Source: Ottowia flava (GTDB lineage Bacteria > Pseudomonadota > Gammaproteobacteria > Burkholderiales > Burkholderiaceae_C). Taken from it: a DNA stretch of 64,000 bases. The stretch is taken from contig NZ_VRUA01000001.1 of the NCBI RefSeq assembly GCF_008017535.1, forward strand, positions 310,001 through 374,000. The letters run 5' to 3'. The notes below the pieces were generated by a model, which was given only the letters and a program-made list of their open reading frames with translations, searched no databases and had not been told where the DNA came from. Within the stretch, counting starts at the first letter, position 1, and the number at the start of each line of letters is the position of its first letter. Positions 2,603-62,128 of the stretch are shown here, one piece after another. Position numbers and translations under genes: made by a program.

Positions 2603-4663
2603 TTGATCACCCTCAAAAATATCATCCTCCGCCGCAGCGCCAAAGTGCTGCTCGACAGCGTCTCCGTCACCCTCAACCCTGGCGAGAAAGTCGGGCTGGT
2701 GGGGCGCAATGGCGCGGGCAAGTCCACGCTGTTCGCGCTGCTCAACGGCACGCTGCACGAAGATGGCGGCGATTTTTCGGTGCCCAAACAGTGGCGGCTG
2801 GCGCAGGTGGCGCAGCACATGCCCGAAACCGAGGAGTCGGCCACCGATTTCGTGGTGGCCGGTGACACCCGCCTGATGGAGGTGCGCGAGCGCCTGGCGC
2901 AGGCCGAAGCGGCGCACGAAGCCAACCCGGACGACGTGGACGCGGGCATGGCGCTGGGCCAGGCCCATACCGACCTGGCCGACGCGGGCGAGCACGACGC
3001 CGTGCCGCGCGCGCAGGCGCTGATCCTCGGCCTGGGCTTTCAGGTGCCCGAGCTGGATCAGCCGGTCAACAGCTTCTCTGGCGGCTGGCGCATGCGCCTG
3101 CAGCTGGCGCGCGCGCTGATGTGCCCAAGCGACCTGCTGCTGCTGGACGAGCCGACCAACCACCTGGATTTGGACGCCCTGGTCTGGCTGGAAAGCTGGC
3201 TGCAGCGCTACGCCGGCACCATGATCGTGATCAGCCACGACCGCGAATTCCTCGACGCCGTGACCGACGTCACCCTGCACATCGAAAACGCGCGCCTCAC
3301 GCGCTACGGCGGCAACTACAGCAAGTTCGAGGACATGCGCGCGCTGCAGATGGAGCAGCAGCAGCAGGCCTTCACCAAGCAGCAGGAAAAGATTGCGCAC
3401 CTGCAGAAGTTCATCGACCGCTTCAAGGCCAAGGCGAGCAAGGCCAAGCAGGCGCAAAGCCGCGTCAAGGCGCTGGAGCGCATGGAAAAGGTGGCGCCGC
3501 TCTTGGCCGAGGCCGACTTCAGCTTCGAATTCAAGGAACCCGCCAACCTGCCCAACCCGATGCTGAGCGTGAGCGATGCCAGCTTCGGCTACGTGCAGGA
3601 CGATGCACCGCCCAAGGTGATCCTGGCGGGCGTCAACCGCTCCGTCCTGGCGGGCCAGCGCATCGGCATTCTGGGCGCCAACGGCCAGGGCAAATCGACC
3701 TTCGTGAAGACCATCGCGCGCGAAATGGGTGCGCTGGCCGGCACGGTGACCGAAGGCAAGGGCCTGAACATCGGCTACTTCGCGCAGCAGGAGCTGGACG
3801 TGCTGCACCCCGGCAGCAACCCGCTGGAGCACATGGTGCGCCTGGCGCGCGAGCTGGGCGCGGCCGCGCCCGAGCGCAGCACCGAGCAGGATCTGCGCGG
3901 CTTTCTGGGCAGCTTCAACTTCAGCGGCGAGATGGTCAAGCAGCCCGTGGGCACCATGAGCGGCGGTGAAAAAGCCCGTCTGGTGCTGGCCATGATGGTG
4001 TGGCAGCGCCCCAACCTGCTGCTGCTGGACGAGCCGACCAACCACCTGGACTTGGCCACGCGCGAGGCGCTGGCGGTGGCGCTGAACGAATTCGAAGGCA
4101 CGCTGATGCTGGTCAGCCACGACCGCGCGCTGCTGCGTTCGGTGTGCGACGAGTTCTGGCTGGTCGGGCGCGGCAAGGTGACCGATTTCAATGGCGACCT
4201 GGACGACTACCAGCGCTACCTGCTGGACGAAGCCAAACGCCAGCGCGAAGCCAACGCCAAGCGCAATGCTATCGAATCGCTAGCTGCCAGCGCAGATGGA
4301 TCTAGGGCTGAAGCCTTAAAAGACCCTCAACCCGCTGCCGCGCCCGTGACCACTGCGGCACCCGCAGCCCCCGCGCTGAGCGCCGCCGACCAGCGCCGCC
4401 AGGACGCGCAGCGGCGCCAGCAACTGGCCGATCAGACGCGCCCGCTCAAGCGCGAGCTGGCCCAGGCGGAAGCGCGCATGGACGCCATCGGCGGCGAGCG
4501 CAACGCGCTGGAGGCGCAGCTCAGCCAGCCGCTGCCGCCCGACGAGATTGCCCAGGCCGGCCGCCGCCTGAAGGTGCTGGGCGACGAGCTGGAGCAGCTG
4601 GAAGCGCGCTGGCTGGAACTGTCCGACAGCCTGCAAACGCTGGAACAATCGGCCGCCGTGTGA
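2603..4663 (+). CDS. ABC-F family ATPase, YheS/Uup type
   Basis: This 686-residue cytosolic protein has two ABC ATPase domains and no membrane segment, the ABC-F plan of ribosome-associated ATPases. Domain 1 shows Walker A GRNGAGKST, signature FSGGWRMRL and Walker B LLLLDEPTNHLD. Domain 2 shows GANGQGKST, MSGGEKARL and the same Walker B. A charged linker lies between them and a coiled-coil tail (about 595-680) follows. The start opening MITLKNIILRRSAK matches YheS-like proteins. The start codon is TTG. Residues about 556-575 are encoded by a copy of the dispersed family A repeat, sitting in the linker before the coiled coil. ABC-F proteins act on translating ribosomes; the exact role of this one is not shown. 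Confidence 0.93.
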   Translation: MITLKNIILRRSAKVLLDSVSVTLNPGEKVGLVGRNGAGKSTLFALLNGTLHEDGGDFSVPKQWRLAQVAQHMPETEESATDFVVAGDTRLMEVRERLAQAEAAHEANPDDVDAGMALGQAHTDLADAGEHDAVPRAQALILGLGFQVPELDQPVNSFSGGWRMRLQLARALMCPSDLLLLDEPTNHLDLDALVWLESWLQRYAGTMIVISHDREFLDAVTDVTLHIENARLTRYGGNYSKFEDMRALQMEQQQQAFTKQQEKIAHLQKFIDRFKAKASKAKQAQSRVKALERMEKVAPLLAEADFSFEFKEPANLPNPMLSVSDASFGYVQDDAPPKVILAGVNRSVLAGQRIGILGANGQGKSTFVKTIAREMGALAGTVTEGKGLNIGYFAQQELDVLHPGSNPLEHMVRLARELGAAAPERSTEQDLRGFLGSFNFSGEMVKQPVGTMSGGEKARLVLAMMVWQRPNLLLLDEPTNHLDLATREALAVALNEFEGTLMLVSHDRALLRSVCDEFWLVGRGKVTDFNGDLDDYQRYLLDEAKRQREANAKRNAIESLAASADGSRAEALKDPQPAAAPVTTAAPAAPALSAADQRRQDAQRRQQLADQTRPLKRELAQAEARMDAIGGERNALEAQLSQPLPPDEIAQAGRRLKVLGDELEQLEARWLELSDSLQTLEQSAAV
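4268..4322 (+). repeat. Family A dispersed repeat, inside the ABC-F gene
   Basis: The copy holds GCTAT and CTAGC flanking arms, the core AGCTGCCAGCGCAGAT and the hairpin GGCT-GA-AGCC. It is translated in frame into about 18 residues of a non-catalytic linker. Confidence 0.8.
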
Positions 4664-4830
4664 CGCGCCGATGACAGCCGCGCCCGTGCCAGATGGGCCC
4701 TTGGTGCGCGGCGCGAGTCCCATGTAGGCCAATGCCGCGAATTAGCCCCAGGGCGGCCTTGGTGTCGTAAGGCAGGGTTACAGTTTGCGCTGTCTAACCA
4801 CCTTTGGACTGAGGAAGAAAGGAACACCAC

Positions 4831-5076
4831 ATGGGCATCATCATCACCATCGTCGTCGGCTTCATCGTGGGCCTGATCGCCCGCGCCATCATGCCGGGCA
4901 ACCAGAGCATGGGCCTCATCATGACGACCATCCTGGGCATCGTCGGTTCGCTGGTCGCCAGCTACGGCGGCGCCGCGCTGGGCCTGTACCCGGCGGGCTC
5001 GCCGATGGGCTGGATCGCATCGATCATCGGCGCCATCATCGTGCTGTTCATCTACGGCCTCGTCACCAAGAAGTAA
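4831..5076 (+). CDS. GlsB/YeaQ/YmgE-type small membrane protein
   Basis: The 81-residue protein is almost entirely three glycine-rich membrane helices. It has the family pattern (FIVGLIARAIMPG near the start, GWIASIIGAIIVLFIYG near the end) of transglycosylase-associated or stress-response membrane proteins. An AAAGGA ribosome site lies ten bases before ATG. The family is linked to general stress in other bacteria; its molecular role is not established. Confidence 0.9.
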   Translation: MGIIITIVVGFIVGLIARAIMPGNQSMGLIMTTILGIVGSLVASYGGAALGLYPAGSPMGWIASIIGAIIVLFIYGLVTKK

Positions 5077-5135
5077 CTTCCCCCGGGCCGCCACCAGACG
5101 CTTTCCCGCCGCCGGTGGCCGGCCCGCCCCACGCC

Positions 5136-5750: not shown

Positions 5751-6079
5751 ACGCGGTCCTTGGCCACGCGGCGATGCCGCTTGCCGATGGGCGGCCTGTC
5801 CGCCTATGGTTCCTTGGTGCGCCTGCAGCCTGTGGCCGCGGCTTCAACGCGATCGTGACAGGTTGACAAAAGGGCCGTCGGCGGGCTCATCCTTCGCGGC
5901 AGTTCGCAATTTCTAAACAATTTCTGCTGCCAGCCCTACAACCACCTGCGCAGACAGCTACGTAATTCCTAGCGCCTCTGGCGCCTATCCAACGCCCCAC
6001 CGCGCGCGCCGCGTCGTCACAGTCCTCGTTGGGCCACCGTGCACCGAAGTGCCGAAGGTAGCCAGCGCCCGCGCGCGGC
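5751..6079. other. Intergenic region, convergent gene ends
   Basis: This 329-base gap between convergent genes contains one inverted family A repeat (about 5908-5968). I see no convincing gene, tRNA or strong terminator in the rest. Confidence 0.6.
5908..5968 (-). repeat. Family A dispersed repeat
   Basis: On the minus strand it reads GTAGCTGTCTGCGCAGG, then GTTGTAGGGCTGGCAGC, ending in an A-rich tail, matching the other copies. Confidence 0.75.
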
Positions 6080-7309: not shown

Positions 7310-7436
7310 AACGTGCCCCAGATCGGCTCGCCACCGCGGGCGCTGCAAGCCGGTAAAAGTCGAACGACCGCGCATCCGGCGCAAGCCCGGCCTGCTGGCC
7401 GGTCGCGCGCCGCGGGGCACCGCTGCGGTCTGGCCG

Positions 7437-7453
7437 AAAGTGTATACAAAACT
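7437..7453. promoter_or_regulatory. Candidate GntR-type operator upstream of puuD
   Basis: AAAGTGTATACAAAACT matches the left half and centre (AAAGTGTATACA) of the perfect palindrome at 9088-9105 in the uraH/GntR intergenic region. The right arm is imperfect. Sharing of this rare string by two urate-gene promoters is the evidence; binding is inferred. Confidence 0.6.
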
Positions 7454-7749: not shown

Positions 7750-7792
7750 TGGCCGTAAGGCGCTCCTTTTTCAGGAGCTGCCTGCGCACAAC

Positions 7793-7817: not shown

Positions 7818-7825
7818 GTCCAAAT

Positions 7826-9060: not shown

Positions 9061-9087
9061 GTGAGACTCCTTTTCCGCATTGTTCAC

Positions 9088-9131: not shown

Positions 9132-9824
9132 ATGGAAGCCTCGAACACCGAGACCATCGTCCACGCGCTCACCCGCGCCATTGTTGAGCACCGTCTGCGC
9201 CCCGGCAGCAAGCTGGCCGAACAGGCGCTGGCGGACCACTTCAGCGTGTCGCGCACATTGGTGCGGCAGGCGCTGTTCCAGCTGTCGCAAAAGCGCCTGG
9301 TCACGCTGGAGCCCGCGCGCGGCGCCTTCGTCGCCAGCCCGTCGACCGAGGAAGCGCGCCAGGTCTTCCAGGTGCGCCGCATGCTGGAGATGGAGCTGAC
9401 GCGCGCCTTCGTCCAGTCCGCCACACCCGCCAAGCTGGCCACCCTGCGCGAGCACGTCGCCAAAGAGCAAGCCGCCGTCGCGCGCGAAGACATCGCCGAC
9501 CGCACCGAGCTGCTGGGCGACTTCCACGTGCTGATGGCCGAGCTGATCGGCAACGCCGTCCTGGCCGAAGTGCTGCGCGATCTGCTGGCGCGCTGCGCCA
9601 TCGCCACGCTGATGTACCAAAGCAGCAGCGCCGCGCACGATTCGGCGGCCGAGCACCAGGCGCTGATCGAATGCTTTGCCACCGGCGACGTGGCCCAGGC
9701 CATCCAACTGATGCGCGAACACCTGGACCATGTGGAAGAAGGCCTCAACCTCGATCGACCAGCCCCCACACACGACGTAAAGCAGGCGCTGGCCCAAGCA
9801 GAATCTGCGCGAACAGCTACTTAA
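9132..9824 (+). CDS. GntR-family regulator, FCD type, of urate genes
   Basis: The 230-residue protein has an N-terminal winged helix (about residues 10-70, with FSVSRTLVRQALFQLSQ) and an all-helical C-terminal ligand domain of the FCD type. It is encoded between uraH and puuE beside a perfect palindrome, so it probably controls urate breakdown in response to a pathway intermediate. The ligand is not known. Its last residues (SARTAT) and stop codon are formed by an inverted partial family A repeat. puuE starts only eight bases downstream, so regulator and enzymes are likely one transcript. Confidence 0.9.
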   Translation: MEASNTETIVHALTRAIVEHRLRPGSKLAEQALADHFSVSRTLVRQALFQLSQKRLVTLEPARGAFVASPSTEEARQVFQVRRMLEMELTRAFVQSATPAKLATLREHVAKEQAAVAREDIADRTELLGDFHVLMAELIGNAVLAEVLRDLLARCAIATLMYQSSSAAHDSAAEHQALIECFATGDVAQAIQLMREHLDHVEEGLNLDRPAPTHDVKQALAQAESARTAT

Positions 9825-9834
9825 TCAATAGCAT
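9798..9834 (-). repeat. Family A dispersed repeat, partial, at the end of the GntR gene
   Basis: On the minus strand it reads GCTAT, seven bases, GTAGCTGTTCGCGCAGAT, the first two hairpins of the family. It supplies the last codons and the stop of the GntR gene and reaches the puuE start. Confidence 0.7.
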
Positions 9835-12718: not shown

Positions 12719-13975
12719 ATGACCTCTTCCGACACCTACGCCGCCCTGGACGCCTGGATCGACCAGCACTTTGACGAGGAAGTGCGCTTCGTGCAGGCGC
12801 TGGTGCGCGTGCCCACCGACACGCCGCCCGGCAACAACGCCCCGCACGCCGACCGCGCGGCCGAGCTGCTACAAGACCTGGGTTACACCGCTGAAAAGCA
12901 CCCCGTGCCGGCCAGCGACGTTCAGGCCTACGGCATGCAAAGCATCACCAACCTGATCGTGCGCCGCCCCTTTGGCGAAGGCGGCCCGACCATCGCGCTG
13001 AACGCGCATGGCGACGTGGTGCCGCCGGGCGACGGCTGGTCGCACGACCCCTACGGCGCCGAGATCGTGGACGGCCAGCTGTTCGGCCGCGCCGCCGCCG
13101 TCAGCAAGAGCGACTTCGGCACTTTCACCTTCGCCCTGCGCGCGCTCGAAGCCGTGGCCAAGCCGAAACACGGCGCAGTCGAATTGCACTTCACCTACGA
13201 CGAAGAATTCGGCGGCGAACTGGGCCCCGGCTGGCTGCTGAAAAACGGGCTGACCAAGCCCGACTTGATGATCGCCGCTGGCTTCAGCTACCAGGTGGTC
13301 GTGGCGCACAACGGCTGCCTGCAGATGGAAGTGACGGTGGAAGGCGAGATGAGCCACGCCGCCATCCCCGACAGCGGCTGCGACGCGATCCAGGGCGCGG
13401 TGCACATCCTGCAGGCGCTGTACGCGCTGAACGCGGGTTACAAGCAGATCACGTCGAAGGTCGAAGGCATCACGCACCCGTACCTCAACATTGGCCAGAT
13501 CGAAGGCGGCACCAACACCAACGTCGTGCCCGGCAAGGCGGTGTTCAAGCTCGACCGCCGCATGATCCCCGAAGAAAACGCCGCCGAGGTCGAAGCGGCG
13601 CTGCGCGAAACGATTGCGCAGGCCGCCGCCAGCTACACACCGCCGCGCGGGCGCAGCGACCTTCGCGTCAGCGTGCGCCGCCTGCTGCTGGCCAACGCCA
13701 TGACGCCGCTGGCCGGCAACGCGCCGCTGGTCGACGCGCTGCAAAAGCACGGCGCGGCGGTCTTCGGCGAAACGCCCGAAGCCGTGGGCACGCCCCTGTA
13801 CACCGACGTGCGCCTGTACGTGGAGCGCGGCGTGCCCGGCGTGATCTACGGCGCCGGCCCGCGCACCGTGCTGGAAAGCCACGCCAAACGCGCCGACGAG
13901 CGCGTGGCCCTGGAAGACCTGCGCCGCGCGACCAAGGTGGTGGCCCGCACCTTGGCCGATCTGCTTTCAAAATAA
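12719..13975 (+). CDS. M20-family metallohydrolase in the urate cluster
   Basis: A 418-residue ArgE/DapE-type hydrolase. Metal-site segments are NAHGDVVPPGDGW, FTYDEEFGGELGPGW with two catalytic acidic residues, and a C-terminal VERGVPGVIYGAGP. The dimerisation domain includes MEVTVEGEMSHAAIP. M20 enzymes hydrolyse amide bonds. Position directly after the UraD-AllC fusion and before the permease suggests action on a ureido or carbamoyl intermediate such as ureidoglycine or ureidoglycolate, but the substrate cannot be read from sequence. Its stop codon overlaps the start of a family A repeat. Confidence 0.88.
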   Translation: MTSSDTYAALDAWIDQHFDEEVRFVQALVRVPTDTPPGNNAPHADRAAELLQDLGYTAEKHPVPASDVQAYGMQSITNLIVRRPFGEGGPTIALNAHGDVVPPGDGWSHDPYGAEIVDGQLFGRAAAVSKSDFGTFTFALRALEAVAKPKHGAVELHFTYDEEFGGELGPGWLLKNGLTKPDLMIAAGFSYQVVVAHNGCLQMEVTVEGEMSHAAIPDSGCDAIQGAVHILQALYALNAGYKQITSKVEGITHPYLNIGQIEGGTNTNVVPGKAVFKLDRRMIPEENAAEVEAALRETIAQAAASYTPPRGRSDLRVSVRRLLLANAMTPLAGNAPLVDALQKHGAAVFGETPEAVGTPLYTDVRLYVERGVPGVIYGAGPRTVLESHAKRADERVALEDLRRATKVVARTLADLLSK

Positions 13976-14020
13976 TAGCTGCCTGCGCAGATATGCCTAG
14001 GGCTACAGCCCGAAAACCTA
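13971..14020 (+). repeat. Family A dispersed repeat overlapping a gene end
   Basis: AATAATAGCTGCCTGCGCAG, then CTAGGGCTACAGCCCGAAAA. The last hairpin GGGCT-AC-AGCCC is perfect. The TAA stop of the M20 gene lies in its first bases. Confidence 0.88.
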
Positions 14021-17883: not shown

Positions 17884-17921
17884 GGCGTGAGGCGTGCGCA
17901 ACACCAGCGCACATCCTGCTT

Positions 17922-17990
17922 GCTATACATTCGGAAGCTGCTTGCGCAAGTGGTTCTAGGGCCAGCGGCCAGAAACCCTTGAAATCTTCG
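17922..17990 (+). repeat. Family A dispersed repeat
   Basis: GCTAT near the 5' end, AGCTGCTTGCGCAAGT and GGGCCAGCGGCC. In the last hairpin GGCC-GGCC replaces the usual GGCT-AGCC, a compensating change. It lies between cysI and ppc. Confidence 0.85.
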
Positions 17991-20926: not shown

Positions 20927-21094
20927 CGCGCTCCAGGGGTGCACAAGGCGGCGCAGCGCCTGCTTATGCCGACCCCGCATATGCCTCAAAGAACTTTGTC
21001 GTTGGTTTTTGGCAACCTGGCACCTACAGTGGCTGGGCACCCACGGCATGGCGCCTGCACGGCCCAAGCTGTCGCAAAACGCAACGACAAGTTC

Positions 21095-21157
21095 TATGAA
21101 AATAATAGCTGCCCGCGCAGATAGCACCAGTGCCAGCGACCTGAATGGCCTGAAAAC
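21095..21157 (+). repeat. Family A dispersed repeat containing a gene start
   Basis: ATAGCTGCCCGCGCAGAT is the consensus core, followed by CCAGTGCCAGCGACCTG. The ATG of the DUF934 gene is in its first bases, so the protein's N-terminus is repeat-derived. Confidence 0.8.
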
Positions 21158-21512
21158 CCTGCACATCGCCAACGACGCCGATCTGGCGGCGCTGGCTGCC
21201 GACGGCGCGCTGCAAGGCGTGGACCGAATCGAGCTGGAATTTCCCAAGTTCACCGACGGCCGCGCCTTCAGCCAGGCCGTGGCCCTGCGCCGCCGCCACG
21301 GCTTCACGGGCGATCTGCGTGCCACCGGCGACGTGCTGATCGACCAGCTGGTGCAGATGGCGCGCAGCGGCTTTTCCAGCGCCGTGCTGGCCGAAGGCGT
21401 GGACGCGGCGGCCGCCGAGCGCCAGTTCCAGCGCTACGCGGCCTTCTACCAGGGCGACGCGCTGCAGCCGCTGCCGCGCTTTGCCCGCGACACGGCCAGG
21501 GCTGCGGCATGA
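21096..21512 (+). CDS. DUF934 protein of the sulfate assimilation cluster
   Basis: The 138-residue protein has the DUF934 core ELEFPKFTDGRAFSQAV followed by LRATGDVLIDQLVQMARSGFSS. This family is regularly encoded between cysI and cysH in betaproteobacteria and is thought to assist sulfite reductase; no biochemical role is established. Its first 20 or so residues (MKIIAARADSTSASDLNGLK) are encoded by a family A repeat. The stop overlaps the cysH start by four bases. The frame is open upstream to 21009, so an earlier start is possible but less likely. Confidence 0.9.
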   Translation: MKIIAARADSTSASDLNGLKTLHIANDADLAALAADGALQGVDRIELEFPKFTDGRAFSQAVALRRRHGFTGDLRATGDVLIDQLVQMARSGFSSAVLAEGVDAAAAERQFQRYAAFYQGDALQPLPRFARDTARAAA

Positions 21513-37590: not shown

Positions 37591-38030
37591 CGCCAGGCCG
37601 CAGACGCGCCGGGCCGGTGTGGCGGCGGTCGGCGACGGCGCAATCGGCGTGCGATCAAGCGGGGCGACTTAGCCCTTTGCTTCAAGACAAATCGCGCTTC
37701 AGCCCTAGATGAATCTGCGCGGGCAGCTATCAAAACAGGTGCGACGCGCTTGAGGCGCAACGGCTGACAGGGGCTGCGGTCAGCGCCGACAAGAATGACG
37801 CGGTGCCAGCACGCGGGCCCGCGTACCGAGGCGACAGCGTCCGTTGCATGGCGCGCCCCTTGCGCGCTGCTCGCACGTCGCGATGCCGACTCTCGCGGAG
37901 CTATGCATCTGGCTTCATAAGGGTTTTTGCATCGGCTGGCGCTGTGCTATCGCCGTAGACTCATTTCATCCGTGCGCGTACCCAGGGGGAGTTCCTGCGT
38001 TCGCGTTGCGCATCACAAGGAGTCACCACG
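37591..38030. other. Intergenic region upstream of the formate dehydrogenase operon
   Basis: This 440-base gap contains one inverted family A repeat (37681-37738). The rest should hold the fdnG promoter; I see no clear binding site. AAGGAG lies nine bases before the fdnG ATG. Confidence 0.55.
37681..37738 (-). repeat. Family A dispersed repeat
   Basis: On the minus strand: GATAGCTGCCCGCGCAGATT, then CTAGGGCTGAAGCGCG and an A/T-rich tail. Its core is identical to the consensus. Confidence 0.85.
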
Positions 38031-41000: not shown

Positions 41001-41102
41001 AAGCAGGGTTATCTGGTGAACACGCTGACCCCCTTCGTGGGCGACGCGAACACGCAGACGCCCGAGTACAAGTCGTTCACCGTGAACATTGAGAAGGCTT
41101 GA
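38031..41102 (+). CDS. fdnG: Formate dehydrogenase-N alpha subunit, selenoprotein
   Basis: The frame is 1023 residues if the UGA at 38616-38618 is read as selenocysteine (residue 196, the same position as in E. coli FdnG). A Tat signal (MNRRQFFRVSGAG) precedes a [4Fe-4S] site, NNCTYCSVGCG with a later LCPKG. Around the UGA the reading is NQARV-Sec-HGPTVAG, then FGRGAMTNHWEDIKNAD, matching the family. The molybdopterin-binding body runs to the C-terminus. It oxidises formate in the periplasm and passes electrons through FdnH and FdnI to quinone. Read without recoding, the gene looks like two pieces (38031-38618 and 38667-41102). A good ribosome site precedes ATG. Confidence 0.97.
38616..38660 (+). 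promoter_or_regulatory. SECIS element at the fdnG UGA codon
   Basis: Directly after UGA, CGGCC (38621-38625) can pair with GGCCG (38655-38659) and AGCC (38633-38636) with GGCT (38642-38645), leaving a GGTCT apical loop. This matches the bacterial SECIS type bound by SelB, with the loop guanines and U bulge region. Confidence 0.88.
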
Positions 41103-41114
41103 GGAGTCCGGTTT

Positions 41115-42077
41115 ATGTCATCTCTTCAATCCCTCGACATCGCCAAGCGCTCGGCTACGACCACGCCGTCGCCGGACGTGCGCCACCGCATTCCGGCGGT
41201 GGCCAAGCTGATCGACGTGTCCAGCTGCATTGGCTGCAAGGCCTGCCAGGTCGCGTGCATGGAATGGAACGATCTGCGCGACGAGGTCGGCACCTGCCAC
41301 GGCACGTACGACAACCCGGTCGATCTGACGCCGCAGTCCTGGACGGTGATGAAGTTCTCGGAGGTCGAGGTCACCCCCGGCCGCCTGGAATGGCTGATCC
41401 GCAAGGACGGCTGTATGCACTGCGAAGACCCGGGCTGCCTGAAGGCCTGCCCGTCGCCGGGCGCCATCGTCAAGTACGCCAATGGCATCGTCGACTTCAT
41501 CAGTGAAAACTGCATTGGCTGCGGCTACTGCGTCAAGGGTTGCCCCTTCGACGTGCCCCGCATCAGCGAGAAGGACAACAAGGCCTACAAGTGCTCGCTG
41601 TGCGCCGACCGCGTCGCCGTCAGCCAGGAGCCGGCCTGCGCCAAGGCCTGCCCCACGGGCGCCATCCGCTTCGGCAGCAAGGAAGACATGCTGGCGTACG
41701 GCGACGGCCGCGTGACCGAACTCAAATCGCGCGGCTACGAGCAGGCCAGCGTCTACAACCCGGCTGGCGTCGGCGGCACGCACGTCATGTACGTGCTGCA
41801 GCACGGCGACAAGCCCGAGCTGTATTCCGACCTGCCCAAGGACCCGACCATCAGCCCCATGGTGGCGCTGTGGAAGGGCCTCGCCAAGCCGGTCGCACTG
41901 GCCACCATGGTGGGCGCTGCGCTGGTCGGCTTCTTCCACCACATGAAGCAGGGCCCGCTGGAAGTGCCGGAAGACGACGAGGACTACGTGCCCGACGGTC
42001 AGCCCAACGTGATCGAACTGGACGGCCAGCGCGTGTACGAGCACGGCACTGCCCCGTCTGAAGGAGAAGTGCGATGA
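41115..42077 (+). CDS. fdnH: Formate dehydrogenase-N iron-sulfur subunit
   Basis: The 320-residue protein has four ferredoxin-like cysteine groups: [35 protein letters not shown] and CSLCADRV with [10 protein letters not shown] single C-terminal membrane helix ([14 protein letters not shown], about residue 262) anchors it. It relays electrons from FdnG to the cytochrome b subunit. GAGGAG precedes ATG, 12 bases after the fdnG stop. Confidence 0.96.
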
Positions 42078-42156
42078 AACATCACCCCCACGCTTCCCCA
42101 CTTCGCGTGGTCCGCTGCCCCCCGAGGGGGAGCTTTTTCCTTTTGGGAGCGGTACG
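42072..42156 (+). repeat. Family B repeat inserted between fdnH and fdnI
   Basis: CACCCCCACGCTTCCCC, CGCGTGG and CCCCCCGAGGGGG. The nine-base string GCGATGAAA occurs at both ends (42072-42080 and 42157-42165), so the insert appears flanked by a short direct repeat that duplicates the gene start. Confidence 0.75.
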
Positions 42157-42159
42157 GCG

Positions 42160-42810
42160 ATGAAAAAGCTCTACCTCCAGCGCTACACCGACAACCAGCG
42201 CATCAACCATTGGCTGGTGGTCGTGCTGTTCGGCTTGGCCGGATTCTCCGGCCTGGCGCTGTTCCACCCCAACCTGTTCTTTCTGACGCAGTTCTTCGGC
42301 GGCCCGCAGTGGACACGCATCGTGCACCCCTACTTCGGTATCGGCGTGTTCGTGCTGTTCCTGTTCATGTTCTTCATGTTCGTCGGCGCCAACCTCTGGC
42401 GCAAATCCGATACCCAGTGGGTCAAGGACGCGCCCAAGCTGGTGCTGGACAACGACGAATCGCAAATGCCACCTGTGGGCAAGTACAACGCCGGTCAGAA
42501 GCTGGTGTTCTGGTCGATGACCCTGTGCCTGCTGGTGCTGCTGGGAACCGGCCTGCTGTTCTGGCAGGCCTGGTTTGCCACCGATGTGCCGATCCCGGTG
42601 CAGCGCGTGGCGGTGCTTCTGCATTCGCTGGCGGCGTTCATCATGTCGCTGACGGCCGTGGTGCACATCTACGCCGCGATCTGGGTCAAGGGCACGCTGC
42701 GCGCCATGACGCAAGGCACCGTGACATCGGGTTGGGCCAAGCGCCACCACAGCTTGTGGTACCGCGAGAAGGTGCAGCAGTCGATCGACCGTGCGCCCGG
42801 CGGACAGTAA
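42160..42810 (+). CDS. fdnI: Formate dehydrogenase cytochrome b556 subunit
   Basis: The 216-residue protein has four membrane helices and histidines suited to bind two b haems (RINHWLVVVLFGLAG near residue 14, LLHSLAAFIMSLTAVVHIYA near 155). It takes electrons from FdnH and reduces quinone in the membrane. Its start lies 82 bases after fdnH because of the inserted repeat, which also carries a copy of the original start context. Confidence 0.95.
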   Translation: MKKLYLQRYTDNQRINHWLVVVLFGLAGFSGLALFHPNLFFLTQFFGGPQWTRIVHPYFGIGVFVLFLFMFFMFVGANLWRKSDTQWVKDAPKLVLDNDESQMPPVGKYNAGQKLVFWSMTLCLLVLLGTGLLFWQAWFATDVPIPVQRVAVLLHSLAAFIMSLTAVVHIYAAIWVKGTLRAMTQGTVTSGWAKRHHSLWYREKVQQSIDRAPGGQ

Positions 42811-42825
42811 GCCGACCGGTCATTT

Positions 42826-42878
42826 GCTACATGTTGTATAGCTGCCCGCGCAGATTCCTCTAGGGCGGGCAGCCCGTT
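42826..42878 (+). repeat. Family A dispersed repeat
   Basis: GCTAC, nine bases, TAGCTGCCCGCGCAGATT, then CTCTAGGGCGGGCAGCCC. The core is exact consensus. It sits immediately before fdhE. Confidence 0.85.
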
Positions 42879-42880
42879 GG

Positions 42881-43912
42881 ATGTCTATGTCTGTCACTGG
42901 TCATTTGCGCACCCCTGAAGAGATCGCGCTGAACGCGGGGGGCGACCTGCCCCGCCTGGTATTGCCGCAGCCCGGCGTGTTTGCCGAGCGCGCGCTGCGC
43001 CTGCGCCAGTTGGCCGCCGGCCACCCGATGCGCGACTACCTGCTGCTGATGGCCGTGTTGGCCGAGGCGCAACACGCGCGCCTGGCCGGCTACCCCGCCG
43101 TCACACTGCCCACGGCCGCGCAGGCCGACGCCGCCTCGCAGCGCGGCGAAGCCCTGCTGGACGCCAGCGTGTGGCCGCGCGACGCCGTCTGGCGCGACGA
43201 ATGGCGCGCGCTGATCCGCCACGCGTTGGAGCACCTGCCGCCGGACAGCCCGGCCCGCCCCAGTGTCGAAGCCGCGCTGTCGCTGACCGACGAGGCCCTG
43301 GAAACGCAGGCCGGCCGCCTGCTGACCGGCGTGTCGCTGGGCCTCGACATGGCGCTGGCGCCGCTGGTCGCTGCCGGGCTGCAGTTGTTCTTCACCCGCC
43401 TGGTCATGGCCACGCAGGCCGCCCTGCCCGGCGCCTTTGGCTACACCGACGACGAAGGGCGCTGCCCCTGCTGCGCCAGCCTACCGTTGGCCAGCGTCAC
43501 CCGCGTGGGCGGCGAAACCGAAGGCCACCGCTACCTGCACTGCACGCTGTGCAACGCCGAATGGCACATGGTGCGCGTCAAGTGCACACACTGCCGCGGC
43601 ACCGGGGCCGTGCGCTTTCGCTCGCTCGAAGCCGTGGCCGCGCCCGATGACGCTGCGGCCGCCAAACGCCCCAGCATCCAGGCCGAAACCTGCGACGATT
43701 GCGGCCACTATCTCAAGATCGTGCACATGACGCAGGACGTGCAGGTCGAACCCGTGGCCGACGACCTGGCCACCTTGACGCTCGATCTGCTGGTGTCCGA
43801 CGCTGGCTACGCACGCCACGGCACCAACCTGCTGCTGCTGTTCGGCGAAGCAGACACCGACAGCGCCGACGACACAGGCGAACCGCCCCCCGCGCCTCGA
43901 GGGCCACACTGA
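42881..43912 (+). CDS. fdhE: Formate dehydrogenase accessory protein FdhE
   Basis: The 343-residue protein has rubredoxin-like cysteine pairs CPCCASLP, CTLCNAEWH, KCTHCRG and ETCDDCGHY in its C-terminal half, as in FdhE. FdhE is needed for maturation of exported formate dehydrogenase. Two ATG codons (42881 and 42887) are possible starts. The stop overlaps the selA start by one base (TGATG). Confidence 0.95.
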   Translation: MSMSVTGHLRTPEEIALNAGGDLPRLVLPQPGVFAERALRLRQLAAGHPMRDYLLLMAVLAEAQHARLAGYPAVTLPTAAQADAASQRGEALLDASVWPRDAVWRDEWRALIRHALEHLPPDSPARPSVEAALSLTDEALETQAGRLLTGVSLGLDMALAPLVAAGLQLFFTRLVMATQAALPGAFGYTDDEGRCPCCASLPLASVTRVGGETEGHRYLHCTLCNAEWHMVRVKCTHCRGTGAVRFRSLEAVAAPDDAAAAKRPSIQAETCDDCGHYLKIVHMTQDVQVEPVADDLATLTLDLLVSDAGYARHGTNLLLLFGEADTDSADDTGEPPPAPRGPH

Positions 43913-45381
43913 TGGCCCGGCCCCCAGAATCCGTGGTCCACGGTTCGCAGGCCCCAAAGTCAGCCTCAACCCCTACGACCGACCTCGCCCGCCCGCAGCA
44001 ACTGCCGGCGCTGGACAAACTGCTGCGCGTGCCCGCCGTGGCCCACCTCGTCGGCGCGCACGGCCACACCGTGGTGGCGGACACGGCGCGCACGCTGCTG
44101 GCCGATCTGCGCGCCCAGGCTGTCGCCGGCACCCTGGCGGCCGGCGCGGTCGACACGCAAGTCATCGCCGACGCGCTGCACCGGCGCGTGGCCGATCGCC
44201 TGGCCCCGCGCATGAAGCCGGTGCTCAACCTCACGGGCACCGTCATCCACACCAACCTGGGCCGCGCCCTGCTGGCGCCCAGCGCGCTGCGCCATGTGCA
44301 GGCCATGATGGCCGGCCCCAACAACCTCGAATATGACCTGGCCAGCGGCCAGCGCGGCGACCGCGACAGCATCGTCGAAGGCCTGCTCTGCGAGCTGACC
44401 GGCGCCGAAGCCGCCACCGTGGTCAACAACAACGCCGCCGCCGTGCTGCTGACGCTGGCGGCGCTGGCACGCGGCAAGGAAGTGATCGTCTCGCGCGGCG
44501 AGTTGGTCGAAATCGGCGGCGCCTTCCGCATGCCCGACGTGATGGAAAGCGCGGGCGCCAAGCTGGTCGAAGTCGGCACCACCAACCGCACCCACCCTGC
44601 CGATTACGAGCGTGCCATCACCGAGCGCACCGCCCTGTTGATGAAGGTACACACCAGCAACTACGCCGTGCAAGGCTTCACCAGTGCGGTGGATGAGGCG
44701 ACGCTGGCCGCCATCGCCCACGCACGCGGCCTGCCCGTGGCCACCGACCTGGGCGCCGGTGCGCTGATCGACATGGCCGCCTACGGCCTGCCGCGCGAAC
44801 CCACGCCGCAAGAGATGCTGCGCGCCGGTTGCGACGTGGTTACCTTCAGCGGTGACAAGCTTCTGGGCGGCCCGCAGGCCGGGTTGATCGTGGGCAGCAA
44901 GGAATGCGTGGGCCGCATCCGCAAGTTCCCGATGAAGCGCGCTCTGCGCATGAGCAAGCTGCCCCTGGCCGCGCTGGAAGCCACGCTGATGCTCTACCAG
45001 CAGCCCGAGCATCTGGCCCAAGCGCTGCCCACGCTGCGCCTGCTGACGCGTCCCTTGGCCGACATTGAAGCCACCGCCGCTCTGGTGTTGCCGGTGCTGG
45101 GGGCCGCACTGGCGCCGCGCTACGCGGTGGAGCCGGTCGCGCTGCAGGGACAGATCGGCTCCGGCTCGCTGCCGGTCGAACGCCTGCCCTCTGCTGGCGT
45201 GGCCATCGCGCCGGTCGACGGCCAACGCAGTGGCCGCGTGCTGGACGCGCTGGCCGCCGCGCTGCGCCAACTGCCCCAACCCGTCATCGGCCGCATTGCC
45301 GATGGCCGTCTGCTGCTGGATTGCCGCTGCCTGGAGGACGCTACCGCCCTGACGAATCAAATACCTTTCTTGTCCTTGTAA
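43912..45381 (+). CDS. selA: Selenocysteine synthase
   Basis: A 489-residue PLP enzyme with the cofactor lysine in FSGDKLLGGPQAG (about K316), plus LNLTGTVIHTNLGRALL and VVNNNAAAVLLTLAALA. It converts seryl-tRNA-Sec to selenocysteyl-tRNA-Sec with selenophosphate. selD, which supplies selenophosphate, is not in this window. The ATG at 43912 is tightly coupled to fdhE. Confidence 0.96.
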   Translation: MARPPESVVHGSQAPKSASTPTTDLARPQQLPALDKLLRVPAVAHLVGAHGHTVVADTARTLLADLRAQAVAGTLAAGAVDTQVIADALHRRVADRLAPRMKPVLNLTGTVIHTNLGRALLAPSALRHVQAMMAGPNNLEYDLASGQRGDRDSIVEGLLCELTGAEAATVVNNNAAAVLLTLAALARGKEVIVSRGELVEIGGAFRMPDVMESAGAKLVEVGTTNRTHPADYERAITERTALLMKVHTSNYAVQGFTSAVDEATLAAIAHARGLPVATDLGAGALIDMAAYGLPREPTPQEMLRAGCDVVTFSGDKLLGGPQAGLIVGSKECVGRIRKFPMKRALRMSKLPLAALEATLMLYQQPEHLAQALPTLRLLTRPLADIEATAALVLPVLGAALAPRYAVEPVALQGQIGSGSLPVERLPSAGVAIAPVDGQRSGRVLDALAAALRQLPQPVIGRIADGRLLLDCRCLEDATALTNQIPFLSL

Positions 45382-45417
45382 AGATTAGCTGGTCAGCTAT
45401 TGGAAAAGGAGCTTTTC

Positions 45418-46812
45418 ATGACCCTTGATCGTCGCCATTTCATCGCCGGTGTGGCCGGTACTGCCGCCCTGGCCGGCTGCGCCACAACGACCTCCAACAG
45501 CGTGGGCGGACTGCAACCGGCGCCGCTGCCCGCCTTCCTCGGCCGTCCCAGCCAGACCTTGCTGCCCAAGGGGAAAGCGCCCCGCGTCGTCGTCTGCGGC
45601 GGCGGTTGGGGTGGCCTGACCACGGCGGCCAACCTGCGCAAACTGGCGCCGCAGGCCGAGGTCGTGCTGATCGACCGCAACCCCAGCTTTTTCTCCAGCC
45701 CACTGTCCAACATGTGGCTGGTCGACATGGTGGACGGCGAGCTGCTGACGCAGGATTACCTTCGCGTGTCGCAGCACCTGGGCTGGCAGTTCGTGCAGGC
45801 GGAGGTGGAAGGCATTGACCGCGCCCAGCGCCGCGTCACCACGAGCCAGGGCACACTCGACTACGACTGGCTGGTGCTGGCACCCGGCATCCGCTACCAG
45901 TACGAAGCCTGGTTCGGCGATGACCGCCGCGCGGCCGACGCCACGCGCCAGCGCTTTCCCAGCGCCTACGCCAGCAACAGCGAATTCCTGACCATCAAGC
46001 GCGCGCTGCACGGCTTTAAGGGCGGCGAACTGGTCATGAACCTACCTCCGCCACCGCAGCGCTGCCCGCCCAGCCCGTACGAACGCGCCTGCCTGATCGC
46101 CTGGTACTTCAAGACGCACAAGATCAAGGGCCACATCACCATCCTCGACCACAAGCCCGGCATCGCCCCCATCGGTGGCGGCTACAAGGCCGCGTTTGAC
46201 GAGCTGTACAAGGACTTCATCACCTACGTGCCCAACGCGCATGTGCAGGAGGTCGACCCGTTCAACCAACGCATCCGCACCGCCGCGGGCGACCAGCGCT
46301 TTGACCACGCCATCCTGATGGCGCCGCACAAGGCGGGCGATCTGGCCTGGCTGGCGGGCACCGTCAGTGCCACCAGCGACGGCTGGGCCGATGTCGACGT
46401 GCTGACCATGCAGGTCAAGGGCGATGAACGCGCCTTCGTCATCGGCGACGCGATCCAGGCCGTGTCGCCCCTGCCCTTCCGCTATTACCCCAAGAGCGCG
46501 CACATCGCCAACCGCCTGGGCCGCATCGTGGCCTACCAGATCAGCGAAAAACTGGCCGGCCGCGCACCCGAGAAGCGCTTGCCCGACAACCTCTGCTACA
46601 TGGTCGTCAACGGCACGCCGGGGCAGGCGCTGAACGTGCAGTTCGACTACGACTTCGACGCTGAAGGCCGCGTGCGCCAGGTTCAGCGCGACTACAACGA
46701 ACGCACAGCCCATCTGTTCCAGGAAGACTTCCGCTGGGCCGACTTCATGTTCGCCGAGATGTTCGGTGGCGCCGCGCCCCCGGTGCTTCCGCAGGCCGCC
46801 TACCGCGTCTGA
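45418..46812 (+). CDS. Flavocytochrome-c sulfide dehydrogenase-like flavoprotein
   Basis: The 464-residue flavoprotein starts with a twin-arginine leader ([12 protein letters not shown]) that also ends in a lipobox-like LAGC. It contains a dinucleotide site [13 protein letters not shown], the active-site-like [11 protein letters not shown] (about residue 215) and a C-terminal FCSD-type domain ([14 protein letters not shown] to LCYMVV). Family members oxidise sulfide or sulfite-related sulfur compounds. A cytochrome partner gene is not adjacent. It is placed between selA and selB, so the context is with formate dehydrogenase, not a known sulfur cluster. Start chosen at ATG with an AAAGGA site; a TTG 18 bases upstream is less likely. 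Confidence 0.85.
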
Positions 46813-46980
46813 TTCGCCACCGCTACCACCATGATCATCGGCACCGCAGGCCACATCGACCACGGCAAGAGCACGCTGGTGCGCGCATTGACGGGCGTCG
46901 ACACCGACCGCCTGCCCGAAGAAAAGCAGCGCGGCATCAGCATCGAGCTGGGCTACGCCTTTCTCGACGTGCCGGATGAC

Positions 46981-47060
46981 TGCCCCCTAGACGCCTCCGG
47001 CGTCGTCCCCCCAGGGGGGAGCCCCGGCCTTGGGGCGGCCCGGCGGCCGGCCGCCGAACG
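46981..47060 (+). repeat. Family B repeat inside selB
   Basis: CCCCCTAGACGCCTCCGG and CGTCGTCCCCCCAGGGGGG form inverted arms (GACGCC with GGCGTC). It is followed by GC-rich inverted pairs. It accounts for a 29-residue insert between the first GTPase strand and the DVPGH motif. Confidence 0.8.
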
Positions 47061-47378
47061 CATGGTTTCATCGACGTGCCCGGGCACGAACGGCTGGTGC
47101 ACACCATGGTGGCCGGTGCCAGCGGCATCGACATGGCGCTGCTGCTGGTCGCCGCCGACGACGGGCCGATGCCGCAGACGTTGGAACACTTGGCCGTGCT
47201 CAGTCTGCTCGGCGTATCGCGCGCCATCGCCGTGCTGACCAAGACCGACCGCGCGGACGCCGCGCGCGTCGCCGCCGTCCGGGCCGAAGTGGCCGCGCTG
47301 CTGGCACCGACGCCGCTCGCCGGCGCGCCCATCGTCGCCGTGTCAGCACAGACGGGCGAGGGTATCGATGCGCTGAAA

Positions 47379-47442
47379 GCTATGCTTTTGGAAGCTGCCC
47401 GCGCAGATGGCTCTAGGGCGGAAGTCGATTTTGACCTGAAAG
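47379..47442 (+). repeat. Family A repeat inside selB
   Basis: GCTAT, eight bases, GAAGCTGCCCGCGCAGATGG and CTCTAGGGCGGAAG. It is translated in frame (LLEAARADGSRAEVDF), with ARADGSRAE recurring from the ABC-F gene copy. Confidence 0.82.
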
Positions 47443-48903
47443 CCTTCCGATTGGCGATCGACCGCGCCTTCACCCTGCCCGGCACCGGCACGGTGGTCAC
47501 AGGCACGGTGCACGCGGGCGAGGTCGCCGTCGGCGGCGAGCTGGCCTTGCTCCCCACTTCATCGGCCCAGCCCCTACCCGCACGCGCGCGCAGCCTGCAC
47601 GCACAAAGCCGCGAAGTCGCCCGTGCCCACGCCGGCCAGCGCTGCGCCGTTGCCCTGCCCGGTATCGCCAAGGACCAGGTCGCGCGCGGCCAGTGGCTCA
47701 CCGCCCCGACCGTCGCCTTGCAGACCCAGCGCGTCGACGTGCGCCTGACGCTGTGGCACGGCGAAGCCAAACCCTTGCGCAGTGGCGCGCGCGTGCTGGC
47801 GCACCTGGGCGCCGCGCAGGTCGCCGCCACCGTGGCCGTGCTGGACGCCGACACCCTGGCGCCCGGCGCCGGCGCCTTTGTGCAACTGGTGCTGCACGCC
47901 CCGGTGGGCGCCTGGCATGGCGAGCGCGTGCTGTTGCGCGACGCTGCGGCCAGCCGCACCTTGGCCGGCGGCAGCGTGCTCGACCCCTTCCCGCCCACGC
48001 GCTACCGCCGCACACCGCAGCGCCTGGCCGAGCTGCAGGCGCTGACCCTGCCCAGCGCCGCCGAGCGCCTGGCGGGCCTGCTGGCCGCAGCGCCTTTCGG
48101 CGTCGATCTGCAGCGCTTCACGACCGCGCAAGGCCTGCTTACCCTGCCGCCAGATGCGATGCCCGACGGCGCGCTGGCCCAAGCAGGGCAAGCGCTGGGC
48201 GCTACGCAAACCGCAGCATTGGAAGCCGCCGTGCTGGCCGCGCTGCAAGCCTTTCACGACAAGCAGCCCGACGAGTTGGGCCCCGACACCGCCCGCCTGC
48301 GCCGCCTGACCGCACCGCGCCTGTCAGCCCCGCTGTGGCAAGCGCTGCTGGCACGGCTGGCTGCCGCCGGCCAGATCGCTCTGCGCGGCGCCGTCGCCCA
48401 TCTGCCTAGCCATGGCGCGCAACTCACGGCGCAGGAAACGCGCATCGCGCAAAAAGTCGCGCCCGCGCTGTCCGCCGCCGGCTACGAAGGCGCCTGGGTG
48501 CGCGACCTGGCCAAAGGCACGGGCGACAGTGAAGCGCTGATGCGCATCACCCTGGCGCGCCTGGCCCGCCAGGGCGAGCTGCACCAGACCGTCAAGGACT
48601 TGTACTACCCGCCCGCCACCATGGCGCGCCTGGCCGCCATCGCCCGCGCCATCGGTGCCGCGCACGACGGCAACGTGCTCGCCGCCCAGTTCCGCGACGC
48701 CACCGGCCTCGGCCGCAAACGCGCCATCCAGATCCTCGAACACTTCGACCGCATCGGCCTCACCCGCCGCGTCGGCGACCTGCACAAACTGCGGGCAGAA
48801 TGCACGCTGTTCACCGAATGAATACGGCGACAAATCCCAAGACCGTCGCGCGTGCCCCTGCCAGCGAACGCCCTGCCCGGGCTGGCACCGGGCATTGGCG
48901 TTG

Positions 48904-48972
48904 TCCCCCTCCCGAAGCGCGCAGCGCGAAGAGAGAGGGGGGAAGGCGCCTGCGGCGCCACAGGGCGGAGAT
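48904..48972 (+). repeat. Family B GC-rich repeat upstream of selC
   Basis: CCCCCTCCCGAAGCGCGCAG with GAGAGAGGGGGG and GGCGCCTGCGGCGCC. It lies between selB and the tRNA gene. Confidence 0.7.
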
Positions 48973-48980
48973 TTCTCTAC

Positions 48981-49073
48981 GGAAGGGCAACCACCCTGGT
49001 GGGTGGGCCGGGCTTCAAACCCGGTGGGTGGCGCCATGCGTCGCCGGGTGGGTTCGACTCCCATGCCCTTCCG
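48981..49073 (+). tRNA. selC: tRNA-Sec (anticodon TCA)
   Basis: An eight-base acceptor stem (GGAAGGGC with GCCCTTCC), a six-base D stem (CCACCC with GGGTGG around TGGT), an anticodon stem CCGGG/CCCGG with loop CTTCAAA, a long variable arm and a T arm with TTCGACT are all visible. The eight-base acceptor and six-base D stem are hallmarks of selenocysteine tRNA. Anticodon TCA is at 49015-49017. The genome continues GCCC after the discriminator region, so a complete CCA end is not encoded exactly and would be added by the tRNA nucleotidyltransferase. Confidence 0.95.
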
Positions 49074-54092: not shown

Positions 54093-54400
54093 GGTGGGTT
54101 CCTCCTGAATATGGGGCGCCGTGGCTAAAGCCTAAGCCTGTCACATGACAGGCAGCGCTCAGCGGCGCACCCGAGCCAACCGGCGCGCCGACGTGGTGGC
54201 GAATGGCGCGGTGACCCGGTTGCCCGATGGCACGGGCGCGGTGACTTGGAGCGCGTGACGGTCAGCCGAAGTGGTCCAGGCGCGCGCGAATCTTGCTTCG
54301 ATTCTCCACCAGCCGAAAAGGTTCCCGGCGCTAGTCCCATCTGCGCTGGCAGCTACAGATAAGCTAGCAAAAAACACCCAACCCGCGGAATGTTCCGCGC
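54093..54400. other. Intergenic region with one family A repeat
   Basis: This 308-base gap carries an inverted family A repeat near 54309-54371; the rest is GC-rich and featureless. Confidence 0.5.
54309..54371 (-). repeat. Family A dispersed repeat
   Basis: On the minus strand: GCTAG, seven or nine bases, TAGCTGCCAGCGCAGATGG, then GACTAGCGCCGGGAACC. The last hairpin is lost. Confidence 0.7.
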
Positions 54401-56429: not shown

Positions 56430-56860
56430 GGGTGTCTCCTGTGGGGCGGGCGGTGGCTTGGGCGCGGTGCGGACGCACCGTAGCGCGCGTGCGAATCGGT
56501 CAATTTCATGATAGCCAGCCAAGCTGGCCTTGGTCTGACAGCCAGCACATCGGGACAAACCCGCATCCACCGGCCAGCCGCAGGGGCGTTGCCGGTGCCC
56601 GAACGCCATGCGCACGGTGGCGGCCGTCGCTTTGCCCTGGTGGCAGCCATCGAGGCCGGAGGACGGCAGACCTCGCACATTCAGGCATCAAAACAGCCTA
56701 CAGCCCCCTGTAGATCTTCGCTAACAGCTACTCTTTAAAGAGCAAACGGCTGTTCTGGCAACCGTGCAGCGCGCGCCCTCTCACCCGTTGCGTCAAGCCA
56801 GCGCGCTGACCAAGCCCTGCTCTGGCCCACCTGGCGGCGTCTCAACAGGTGGGTACTTGT
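56430..56860. other. Intergenic region between acyl-CoA synthetase and thioesterase
   Basis: This 431-base gap contains a family A repeat (56681-56746) and little else. It probably separates two transcripts. Confidence 0.55.
56681..56746 (-). repeat. Family A dispersed repeat, diverged
   Basis: On the minus strand: GCTCTTTAAAGAGTAGCTG, TTAGCGAAGAT and GGGGGCTGTAGGCTG. The first part includes a perfect 12-base palindrome CTCTTTAAAGAG. Confidence 0.65.
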
Positions 56861-57316: not shown

Positions 57317-57329
57317 CAGCGCACGGCCC

Positions 57330-58319: not shown

Positions 58320-58364
58320 GCAGGCTCCAGACTTCGGCTCAAAAAAAGAACAGGACGGCTCAGG

Positions 58365-62128: not shown

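What the first reader, a model, noticed from the sequence alone, without database searches (positions are those of the whole stretch)
4268..60312. Family A: a ~60-bp dispersed repeat with three small hairpins and compensating changes
About 22 copies occur in both orientations, roughly one per 3 kb. The unit is GCTAT-N7-ATAGC (hairpin 1), CTGC-N4-GCAG (hairpin 2), then GGCT-N2-AGCC (hairpin 3) and an A-rich tail. Arms change in pairs: GCTAC/GTAGC at 30494, GGCC/GGCC at 17922 and 30531, so the structure rather than the sequence seems to be conserved. I know of short dispersed repeats in Comamonadaceae from memory but cannot cite this one. It may be a non-autonomous element, a transcript-end signal or an RNA processing site.
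Basis: partly seen in the sequence, partly recalled or inferred. Interest (0 to 1): 0.75.

Follow-up and report, generated by a model that had tools for sequence, protein, structure and literature searches.

The report
Sixty-six-base repeat with species dialects
A short DNA element scattered through this bacterium's genome sits at the same places in a related species, yet each species spells its middle part in its own way, which suggests that something in the cell recognises the DNA sequence itself rather than an RNA hairpin.

Summary
The repeat is real: 21 full copies and one fragment in the window, 156 in 462 kb of the genome, roughly 1,400 by extrapolation. The proposed "compensating changes" are not borne out: no stem covaries in the window copies or among 156, 167 and 160 copies of three genomes, apart from a few nearly invariant single pairs. 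The unit is about 66 bp and 50-54% GC in a 66% GC genome. It is sparse in divergent gaps and shows no strand preference against transcription.

In a congener, 28 of 29 testable copies sit at the same place and orientation. Orthologous copies keep private loop and flank letters but carry their own species' middle dialect (25/28 and 26/28, leave-out models). Core letters outlast flanks (0.92 v 0.52). Some copies lie in frame inside ParB, GlmU, TruB and SelB genes, with 4-19 added residues.

Best reading: an ancient non-autonomous family, now fixed and evolving in concert, probably because a protein reads it. RAYT linkage and terminator readings fail; an insertion origin is likely but unproven; an uptake-sequence role stays open.

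The parts
4267..4325 (+). copy, in frame inside an ABC-F ATPase gene
   Evidence: R1 49.6 bits; aa 555-577 of ORF 2603-4663; weak (20.5 bits) G011 hit in the same gap
5916..5973 (-). copy
   Evidence: R1 43.0 bits; G011 copy in the same gap
7762..7788 (+). fragment of a copy (left half)
   Evidence: R1 13.3 bits; G011 hit of 33.0 bits in the same gap
9777..9833 (-). copy overlapping the 3' end of ORF 9132-9824, a GntR-like regulator by weak family matches
   Evidence: R1 47.8 bits
12656..12714 (+). copy
   Evidence: R1 46.4 bits; G011 copy in the same gap
13962..14016 (+). copy
   Evidence: R1 43.2 bits; G011 copy in the same gap; no copy in the same gap of G014, which differs in length by 4
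17921..17975 (+). copy upstream of the PEP carboxylase gene
   Evidence: R1 41.6 bits
21094..21150 (+). copy, readable in frame near the start of ORF 21009-21512
   Evidence: R1 40.1 bits
23467..23522 (+). copy forming N-terminal codons of cysN
   Evidence: R1 44.2 bits
25513..25572 (-). copy
   Evidence: R1 35.2 bits; G011 copy in the same gap
   Evidence: R1 48.6 bits
30495..30547 (+). copy
   Evidence: R1 41.5 bits
31236..31292 (+). copy
   Evidence: R1 38.8 bits
33527..33582 (+). copy
   Evidence: R1 36.1 bits
35605..35663 (+). copy
   Evidence: R1 48.6 bits; G011 copy in the same gap
37684..37739 (-). copy
   Evidence: R1 47.5 bits; G011 copy in the same gap
42825..42882 (+). copy just upstream of fdhE
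   Evidence: R1 43.9 bits
47379..47437 (+). copy, in frame inside selB (+6 residues against the solved SelB 5lzb)
   Evidence: R1 47.0 bits
49075..49131 (-). copy, the one flank-mapped copy without a counterpart in G011
   Evidence: R1 38.5 bits
49657..49716 (-). copy
   Evidence: R1 38.4 bits; G011 copy in the same gap
54312..54369 (-). copy
   Evidence: R1 39.4 bits; G011 hit in the same gap
56687..56744 (-). copy, lowest-scoring full copy
   Evidence: R1 30.4 bits

Best explanation
A roughly 66-bp non-autonomous DNA element spread many times in an ancestor within the Comamonadaceae, mostly between genes and sometimes in frame inside genes. In the genus studied most copies are now inherited in place. 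They are still maintained: core letters are held far better than flanks, and the middle ~20 bp of the copies drifts together into a species dialect. The likeliest cause is a chromosome-encoded protein that reads the double-stranded DNA at many of these sites, so that copies follow its specificity; the role would be architectural (nucleoid, supercoil or domain marking) at places where promoters are not disturbed. Shown here on samples: repeat, density, lack of stem covariation, orthology, dialects, constraint, in-frame copies. Inferred: insertion as origin, a binding protein, an architectural role.
For: Density 0.33-0.34/kb in each of three genomes, with 0, 0 and 1 reversed-control hits at thresholds chosen on that control. 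Same-place, same-orientation copies: 28 of 29 G000-G011, 8 of 12 G000-G014. Dialect preference by leave-out models 25/28 and 26/28; 7/8 and 8/8. G000-G011 ortholog identity: core 0.92, flanks 0.52, loop 0.64, middle 0.44; core minus flank 0.39 (CI 0.31-0.48), loop minus middle 0.20 (CI 0.11-0.28). Loop and flank memory argues against whole-unit conversion or re-insertion. Mutual information inside the element averages 0.13-0.15 between neighbours (flanks 0.06-0.08) and about 0.04 at 10-20 bases; the strongest pairs are neighbours such as TTT/AAA and CA/TG, as expected of DNA readout rather than stems. Copies: 34 in convergent, 66 in co-directional, 9 in divergent neighbourhoods, against 44, 161 and 51 gaps of 60 bp or more. 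For insertion: net +19 residues in ParB, +11 GlmU, +9 CCA enzyme, +4 TruB, +6 SelB against solved homologues; cysD-stop to CysN-core distance 77 bp in three Polaromonas loci against 11 bp in L107 (Limnohabitans), L108, Roseateles and Inhella loci.
Against: No binding protein was identified. Insertion: among 42 rows where a relative lacks the copy (directed comparisons, some gaps counted more than once), only 2 rows, one gap holding an inverted pair, differ by about 66 bp (-70), while 10 rows are within 10 bp of equal length; that fits change in place, or gap turnover, better than clean insertion. The cysD-cysN distance runs from 11 to 180 bp in named loci without a recognised copy, and locus L132 has 77 bp without one. 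No target duplication or terminal inverted repeat was noticed; none was searched for by a dedicated test. The dialect test rests on one close pair (n = 28) and small deeper pairs; in those the loop-middle difference reaches zero, and G003 copies preferred their own model in only 3/4, 2/5 and 2/3 cases. Flank identities were taken at fixed offsets, so indels lower them. A few stem pairs exceed independence slightly (G011 columns 10-28, 13-25, 7-12; G014 -10 with 2; 2-3 points, z about 4), and across dialects the central stem shows a weak excess.
Confidence: 0.45

Rival explanations
1. DNA uptake sequence: copies are self-markers for natural transformation. Uptake bias drives sites towards the receptor's preferred sequence; a receptor change gives a new dialect at all sites.
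For: About 1,400 copies by extrapolation, no link to transcription or clear link to replication strand, dialects among relatives at shared sites. One own-dialect copy as query found only 3 weak partial matches in 72,556 plasmid records and none in phages. Neisseriaceae DUS show eight dialects and thousands of sites per genome (PMC3630211, passages seen). 10 of 42 absence rows are nearly equal in length.
Against: About 66 bp and ~52 bits, far longer than a 10-12-mer DUS. In-gene copies come with added residues in five of five proteins compared, whereas uptake sites should arise by point mutation. ComEC is found in 26 of 29 congeners, with and without the element; the three without are 62-81% complete, so it does not discriminate. 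No receptor identified.
Confidence: 0.15
2. Ordinary mobile repeat (MITE/REP-like), still or recently mobile, with dialects caused by lineage-specific bursts.
For: Added residues inside proteins. Deeper pairs share only about half to two thirds of sites.
Against: 28 of 29 copies shared with G011, with shared private loop letters; the dialect lies in orthologous copies. RAYT presence does not track copy number, and the one own RAYT carries a different repeat at its borders.
Confidence: 0.2
3. RNA element: hairpins acting as terminator, RNase site or transcript-end signal.
For: T-tract after a G+C-rich patch; many copies between convergent genes; in G011 and G014 the consensus arms GCGC...GCGC can pair; small excess of pairing across dialects, 68.4% v 66.4%, 1 of 500 shuffles as high; a few single pairs with z about 4 in G011 and G014.
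Against: No stem as a whole covaries within a genome; the own-genome central stem has a G-G mismatch in 113 of 156 copies; 33 sense against 33 antisense copies; T/A tract not following orientation; no Rfam match at gathering score on a copy; across dialects two slid controls score as high or higher than the structure (0.187 and 0.137 v 0.134).
Confidence: 0.1
4. Short-tract gene conversion or template switching homogenises the middle between conserved anchor words, without selection on a binding protein.
For: Concerted change mainly in the middle; conserved words on both sides.
Against: Copies are only about 64-69% identical per column; correlations fade within a few bases rather than forming blocks.
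Confidence: 0.07

Closest known systems
Rickettsia palindromic elements (RPE)
   Same: Short dispersed palindromic unit found between genes and in frame inside unrelated conserved genes, with a recurring peptide (PMC10969869, passages seen).
   Different: About 66 bp against ~150 bp; far more copies; mostly intergenic; species dialects at shared sites. No sequence comparison was made.
REP/RAYT systems
   Same: Hundreds of short intergenic palindromic repeats (general description recalled).
   Different: Copy number does not follow RAYT presence; the own RAYT is bordered by a different repeat.
DNA uptake sequences and their dialects (Neisseriaceae DUS, Pasteurellaceae USS)
   Same: Very many sites and species dialects (PMC3630211, passages seen; PMC12616744, abstract seen).
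   Different: Much longer; added residues in proteins; no uptake data.
Beta-proteobacterial repeat element BRE (PMC3110155)
   Same: Intergenic and sometimes intragenic repeat reported from Bordetella and from Comamonadaceae including Polaromonas, Rhodoferax and Delftia (section 14 read).
   Different: 75-91 bp and 69% GC in Bordetella, sometimes in tandem, at most 29 copies under that paper's cut-offs; here ~66 bp, 50-54% GC, ~1,400 copies by extrapolation, and 0 matches in Achromobacter insuavis. The BRE letters were not visible to me, so no alignment was made and a relation is not excluded.

Membership tests
REP/RAYT | cognate RAYT transposase where the repeat is abundant | tested here: not met
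   Y1_Tnp found in 21 of 29 congeners without tracking copy number: none in copy-rich G017 (99% complete), G016 and G020 (86% and 76%), present in copy-poor G012 and G004
REP/RAYT | RAYT gene bordered by its own REP | tested here: not met
   Own RAYT bordered by TCTGACCCC-type repeats; two copies of this element lie in the 3.3-kb locus, where the density predicts about one
MITE | terminal inverted repeats and target duplication | tested here: inconclusive
   Judged by eye only: no matching ends in the 66-column alignment, no clean empty site with duplication
Rickettsia palindromic element | in-frame copies inside conserved genes with a recurring reading frame | tested here: met
   32 of 156 own copies lie inside called genes, weak ones down to 13.7 bits included; at 44 bits or more, 8 of 10 sense and 8 of 9 antisense copies share one frame per strand, by eye
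Rickettsia palindromic element | sequence membership in an RPE family | not tested
   no RPE sequences were fetched
DNA uptake sequence | promotes uptake or transformation of DNA carrying it | not testable with these tools
   needs an experiment
DNA uptake sequence | high copy number with species dialects | tested here: met
DNA uptake sequence | sites arise by point change without indels | tested here: inconclusive
   Residues added in five proteins; 10 of 42 absence rows nearly equal in length
BRE | BRE sequence | not testable with these tools
   figure and supplement not held; GC, length and host range differ
structured RNA / terminator | covarying stems, fixed orientation to transcription | tested here: not met
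   a few single pairs with z about 4 noted

The most novel reading that the evidence does not exclude
A genome-wide self-recognition code in Comamonadaceae: some 1,400 fixed ~66-bp sites per genome that switch dialect together between species, read by an unknown protein for DNA uptake or chromosome identity, and also sitting in frame inside housekeeping proteins such as ParB, GlmU and TruB.
Probability: 0.15. Interest if true: 0.9.

Novelty: new variant of a known kind. Interest (0 to 1): 0.62.

Why it matters
If the dialects seen in the sampled pairs hold across whole genomes, over a thousand orthologous short sites change spelling together while keeping their private spacer letters. Neither transposition nor whole-copy conversion explains that easily, so it points to an unknown sequence-reading factor in a large group of environmental bacteria. 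It also offers a second, distant case of a short element living in frame inside conserved proteins.

Tried and rejected
RNA covariation: rejected for whole stems on the window copies and in four genomes. Terminator: rejected as the main reading. RAYT-driven REP: rejected. Replication-strand signals of the Chi or KOPS kind: no clear link to local GC skew in three genomes, though G014 has an overall plus excess, 96 v 64. Plasmid or phage origin: with one own-dialect copy as query, 3 weak partial matches and none. ComEC as a discriminator: uninformative. Literature: I saw no report of this repeat in the listings; several of these lists were capped (for example 12 of 1,903 papers shown), subscription journals are mostly not held, and of the papers only passages or sections were read: PMC2755013 passages on CRISPR, PMC3110155 passages and section 14, PMC3630211 passages, PMC12616744 abstract, PMC10969869 and PMC2694212 passages.

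The first cross-dialect pair count used a shifted bracket line and was replaced. Some rows are weak: L215 15309 looks chance-like, and the L185 and L232 rows each come from an inverted pair counted twice; I draw no rate from them. Equal-length in-gene cases could not be aligned by blastn and stay ambiguous. The gap-free 66 columns are partly by construction, since the copies were found with an ungapped matrix.

Full report
OBSERVATION. The window holds 21 full copies of the repeat and one fragment. The left dyad alone, with one mismatch allowed, occurs 10 times against 0.28 expected. Genome-wide, ATAGCTGCTTGCGC occurs 58 times against 0 reversed-control hits and TAGCTGCNNGCGC 397 times against 20. 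A position-weight model finds 156 copies in 462 kb of the own genome with no reversed-control hit at its threshold, which was itself set on that control. That is 0.34 per kb, about 1,400 copies in 4.12 Mb by extrapolation; the 20 further stretches were chosen by me, some around known hits, so the figure is rough.

NO COMPENSATING CHANGES. In the 21 copies, one of 12 pairs shows any change on both sides, against 3.3 in shuffles. In 156, 167, 160 and 38 copies of G000, G011, G014 and G003, no proposed stem as a whole pairs more often than independent columns would. Single exceptions, all nearly invariant pairs with an excess of 2-3 points and z about 4, are columns 10-28, 13-25 and 7-12 in G011 and -10 with 2 in G014; other pairs fall below expectation. 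The strongest correlations are nearly all between neighbouring bases, such as TTT or AAA at columns 39-41 and CA or TG at columns 29-30. Average mutual information inside the element is 0.13-0.15 at distance 1, against 0.06-0.08 between neighbours in the flanks, and about 0.04 at 10-20 bases, which by my estimate is near the floor set by sample size. Across dialects the central stem shows a small excess of pairing (68.4% v 66.4%, 1 of 500 shuffles as high; covariation 0.134 v 0.106, 3 of 500), but two slid controls score as high or higher, 0.187 and 0.137. So sequence, not structure, is what is mainly held.

ANATOMY. 76 copies from several genomes align over 66 columns without a gap; they had been found with an ungapped matrix, so this is partly by construction. 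There is a left part (t-[G/A]CTAT-N7-ATAGCT), a middle of about 20 bp that differs by species, and a right part (GGCC-N-ATTT...AAA). The GC content is 50-54% in about 66% GC DNA.

CONTEXT. The sample has 44 convergent, 161 co-directional and 51 divergent gaps of 60 bp or more. Divergent, promoter-bearing gaps hold few copies, and there is no strand preference.

ORTHOLOGY AND DIALECTS. G011 is a congener with flanks 84% identical on average. Only copies whose two flanks mapped to one fetched stretch could be tested: 29 of 156. Of these, 28 have a same-orientation copy in the same place. For G000-G014 it is 8 of 12; G011-G014 9 of 17, with 2 more in opposite orientation only; G000-G003 4 of 7, 1 more opposite; G011-G003 5 of 10, 1 more opposite; G014-G003 3 of 6. 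Models built without the tested pairs assign 25 of 28 G000 copies and 26 of 28 G011 copies to their own species; G000-G014 gives 7 of 8 and 8 of 8, G011-G014 9 of 9 and 8 of 9. Against G003, with a small model, 4 of 4, 5 of 5 and 3 of 3 partner copies but only 3 of 4, 2 of 5 and 2 of 3 G003 copies preferred their own model, a weaker result. In G000-G011 pairs the core is 0.92 identical, flanks 0.52, the loop inside the element 0.64 (unrelated copies 0.37) and the middle 0.44 (unrelated 0.32); flanks were compared at fixed offsets, so indels lower that value. In the two deeper pairs (n = 8 and 9) core still exceeds flanks, but the loop-middle difference is not clear. Copies in the close pair therefore descend vertically, are constrained, and change dialect in the middle faster than their own loop.

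HOST RANGE. The model includes copies from several of these records, so some hits are by construction. G007, poor in the G000 spelling (13 core matches), carries its own dialect: 29 places in 148 kb, some counted twice because two loci overlap.

COPIES INSIDE GENES. 32 of 156 copies, weak ones included, lie inside called genes. Against solved homologues the stretch adds 19 residues in ParB, 11 in GlmU, 9 in a CCA-adding enzyme, 4 in TruB and 6 in SelB; these five were the ones compared. At cysN, the distance from the cysD stop to the conserved core is 77 bp in three Polaromonas loci and 11 bp in four loci (L107 of Limnohabitans, L108 of an unnamed Comamonadaceae MAG, Roseateles and Inhella), a step of 66 bp; but named loci without a recognised copy range from 11 to 180 bp and L132 has 77 bp without one. 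This favours insertion as the origin without proving it. Against a clean insertion, of 42 rows where a relative lacks the copy, 10 are within 10 bp of equal length and only 2, from one gap with an inverted pair, are about 66 bp shorter.

WHAT IT IS NOT. Not tied to a RAYT. No Rfam family at gathering score. No phage record and only 3 weak plasmid matches for one query copy. No clear replication-strand signal. BRE, a repeat reported from Bordetella and Comamonadaceae, differs in length, GC, copy number and host range, but I could not see its letters.

MECHANISM. The best reading is an old non-autonomous family now fixed in place and kept in step by a DNA-reading protein, most likely architectural. 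The protein is inferred, not found. A DNA-uptake role is the boldest reading left open: dialects at many sites resemble those of Neisseriaceae (PMC3630211, passages), but the length and the added residues speak against it, and ComEC presence does not discriminate. The in-frame habit resembles Rickettsia palindromic elements (PMC10969869, passages).

LIMITS. The deeper orthology counts are small. My gene caller is crude. Rows dropped: copies without both flanks mapped to one locus were left out of orthology counts.

Noticed in passing
window 38613-49072: Selenocysteine cluster: SECIS element, fdhE, selA, a gene with a match to selenoprotein-type sulfide quinone reductase below that family's cut-off (45418-46812), selB and tRNA-Sec.
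   Followed up: no
L185:17624 and 17665; L192:17259 and 5894; L195:11271; L194:4489: A second right-half variant in G003 and G014, roughly GGATTTCAG...TTTTCTCTTGAAATC, joined to the usual left half.
   Followed up: no
L061, L063, L064 near the M20 peptidase gene: Another intergenic repeat of the form TTCGCGTCCTTCGCG / CGCGAAGGACGCGAAAG in several congeners.
   Followed up: no
L095:1462-2280: Single RAYT gene of the own genome bordered by TCTGACCCCAATTAA-type repeats; a copy of the 66-bp element sits directly after its stop codon.
   Followed up: partly
Ralstonia pickettii genome behind L168: One strong match (E 1.7e-9) in an otherwise element-free genome, possibly transferred DNA.
   Followed up: no
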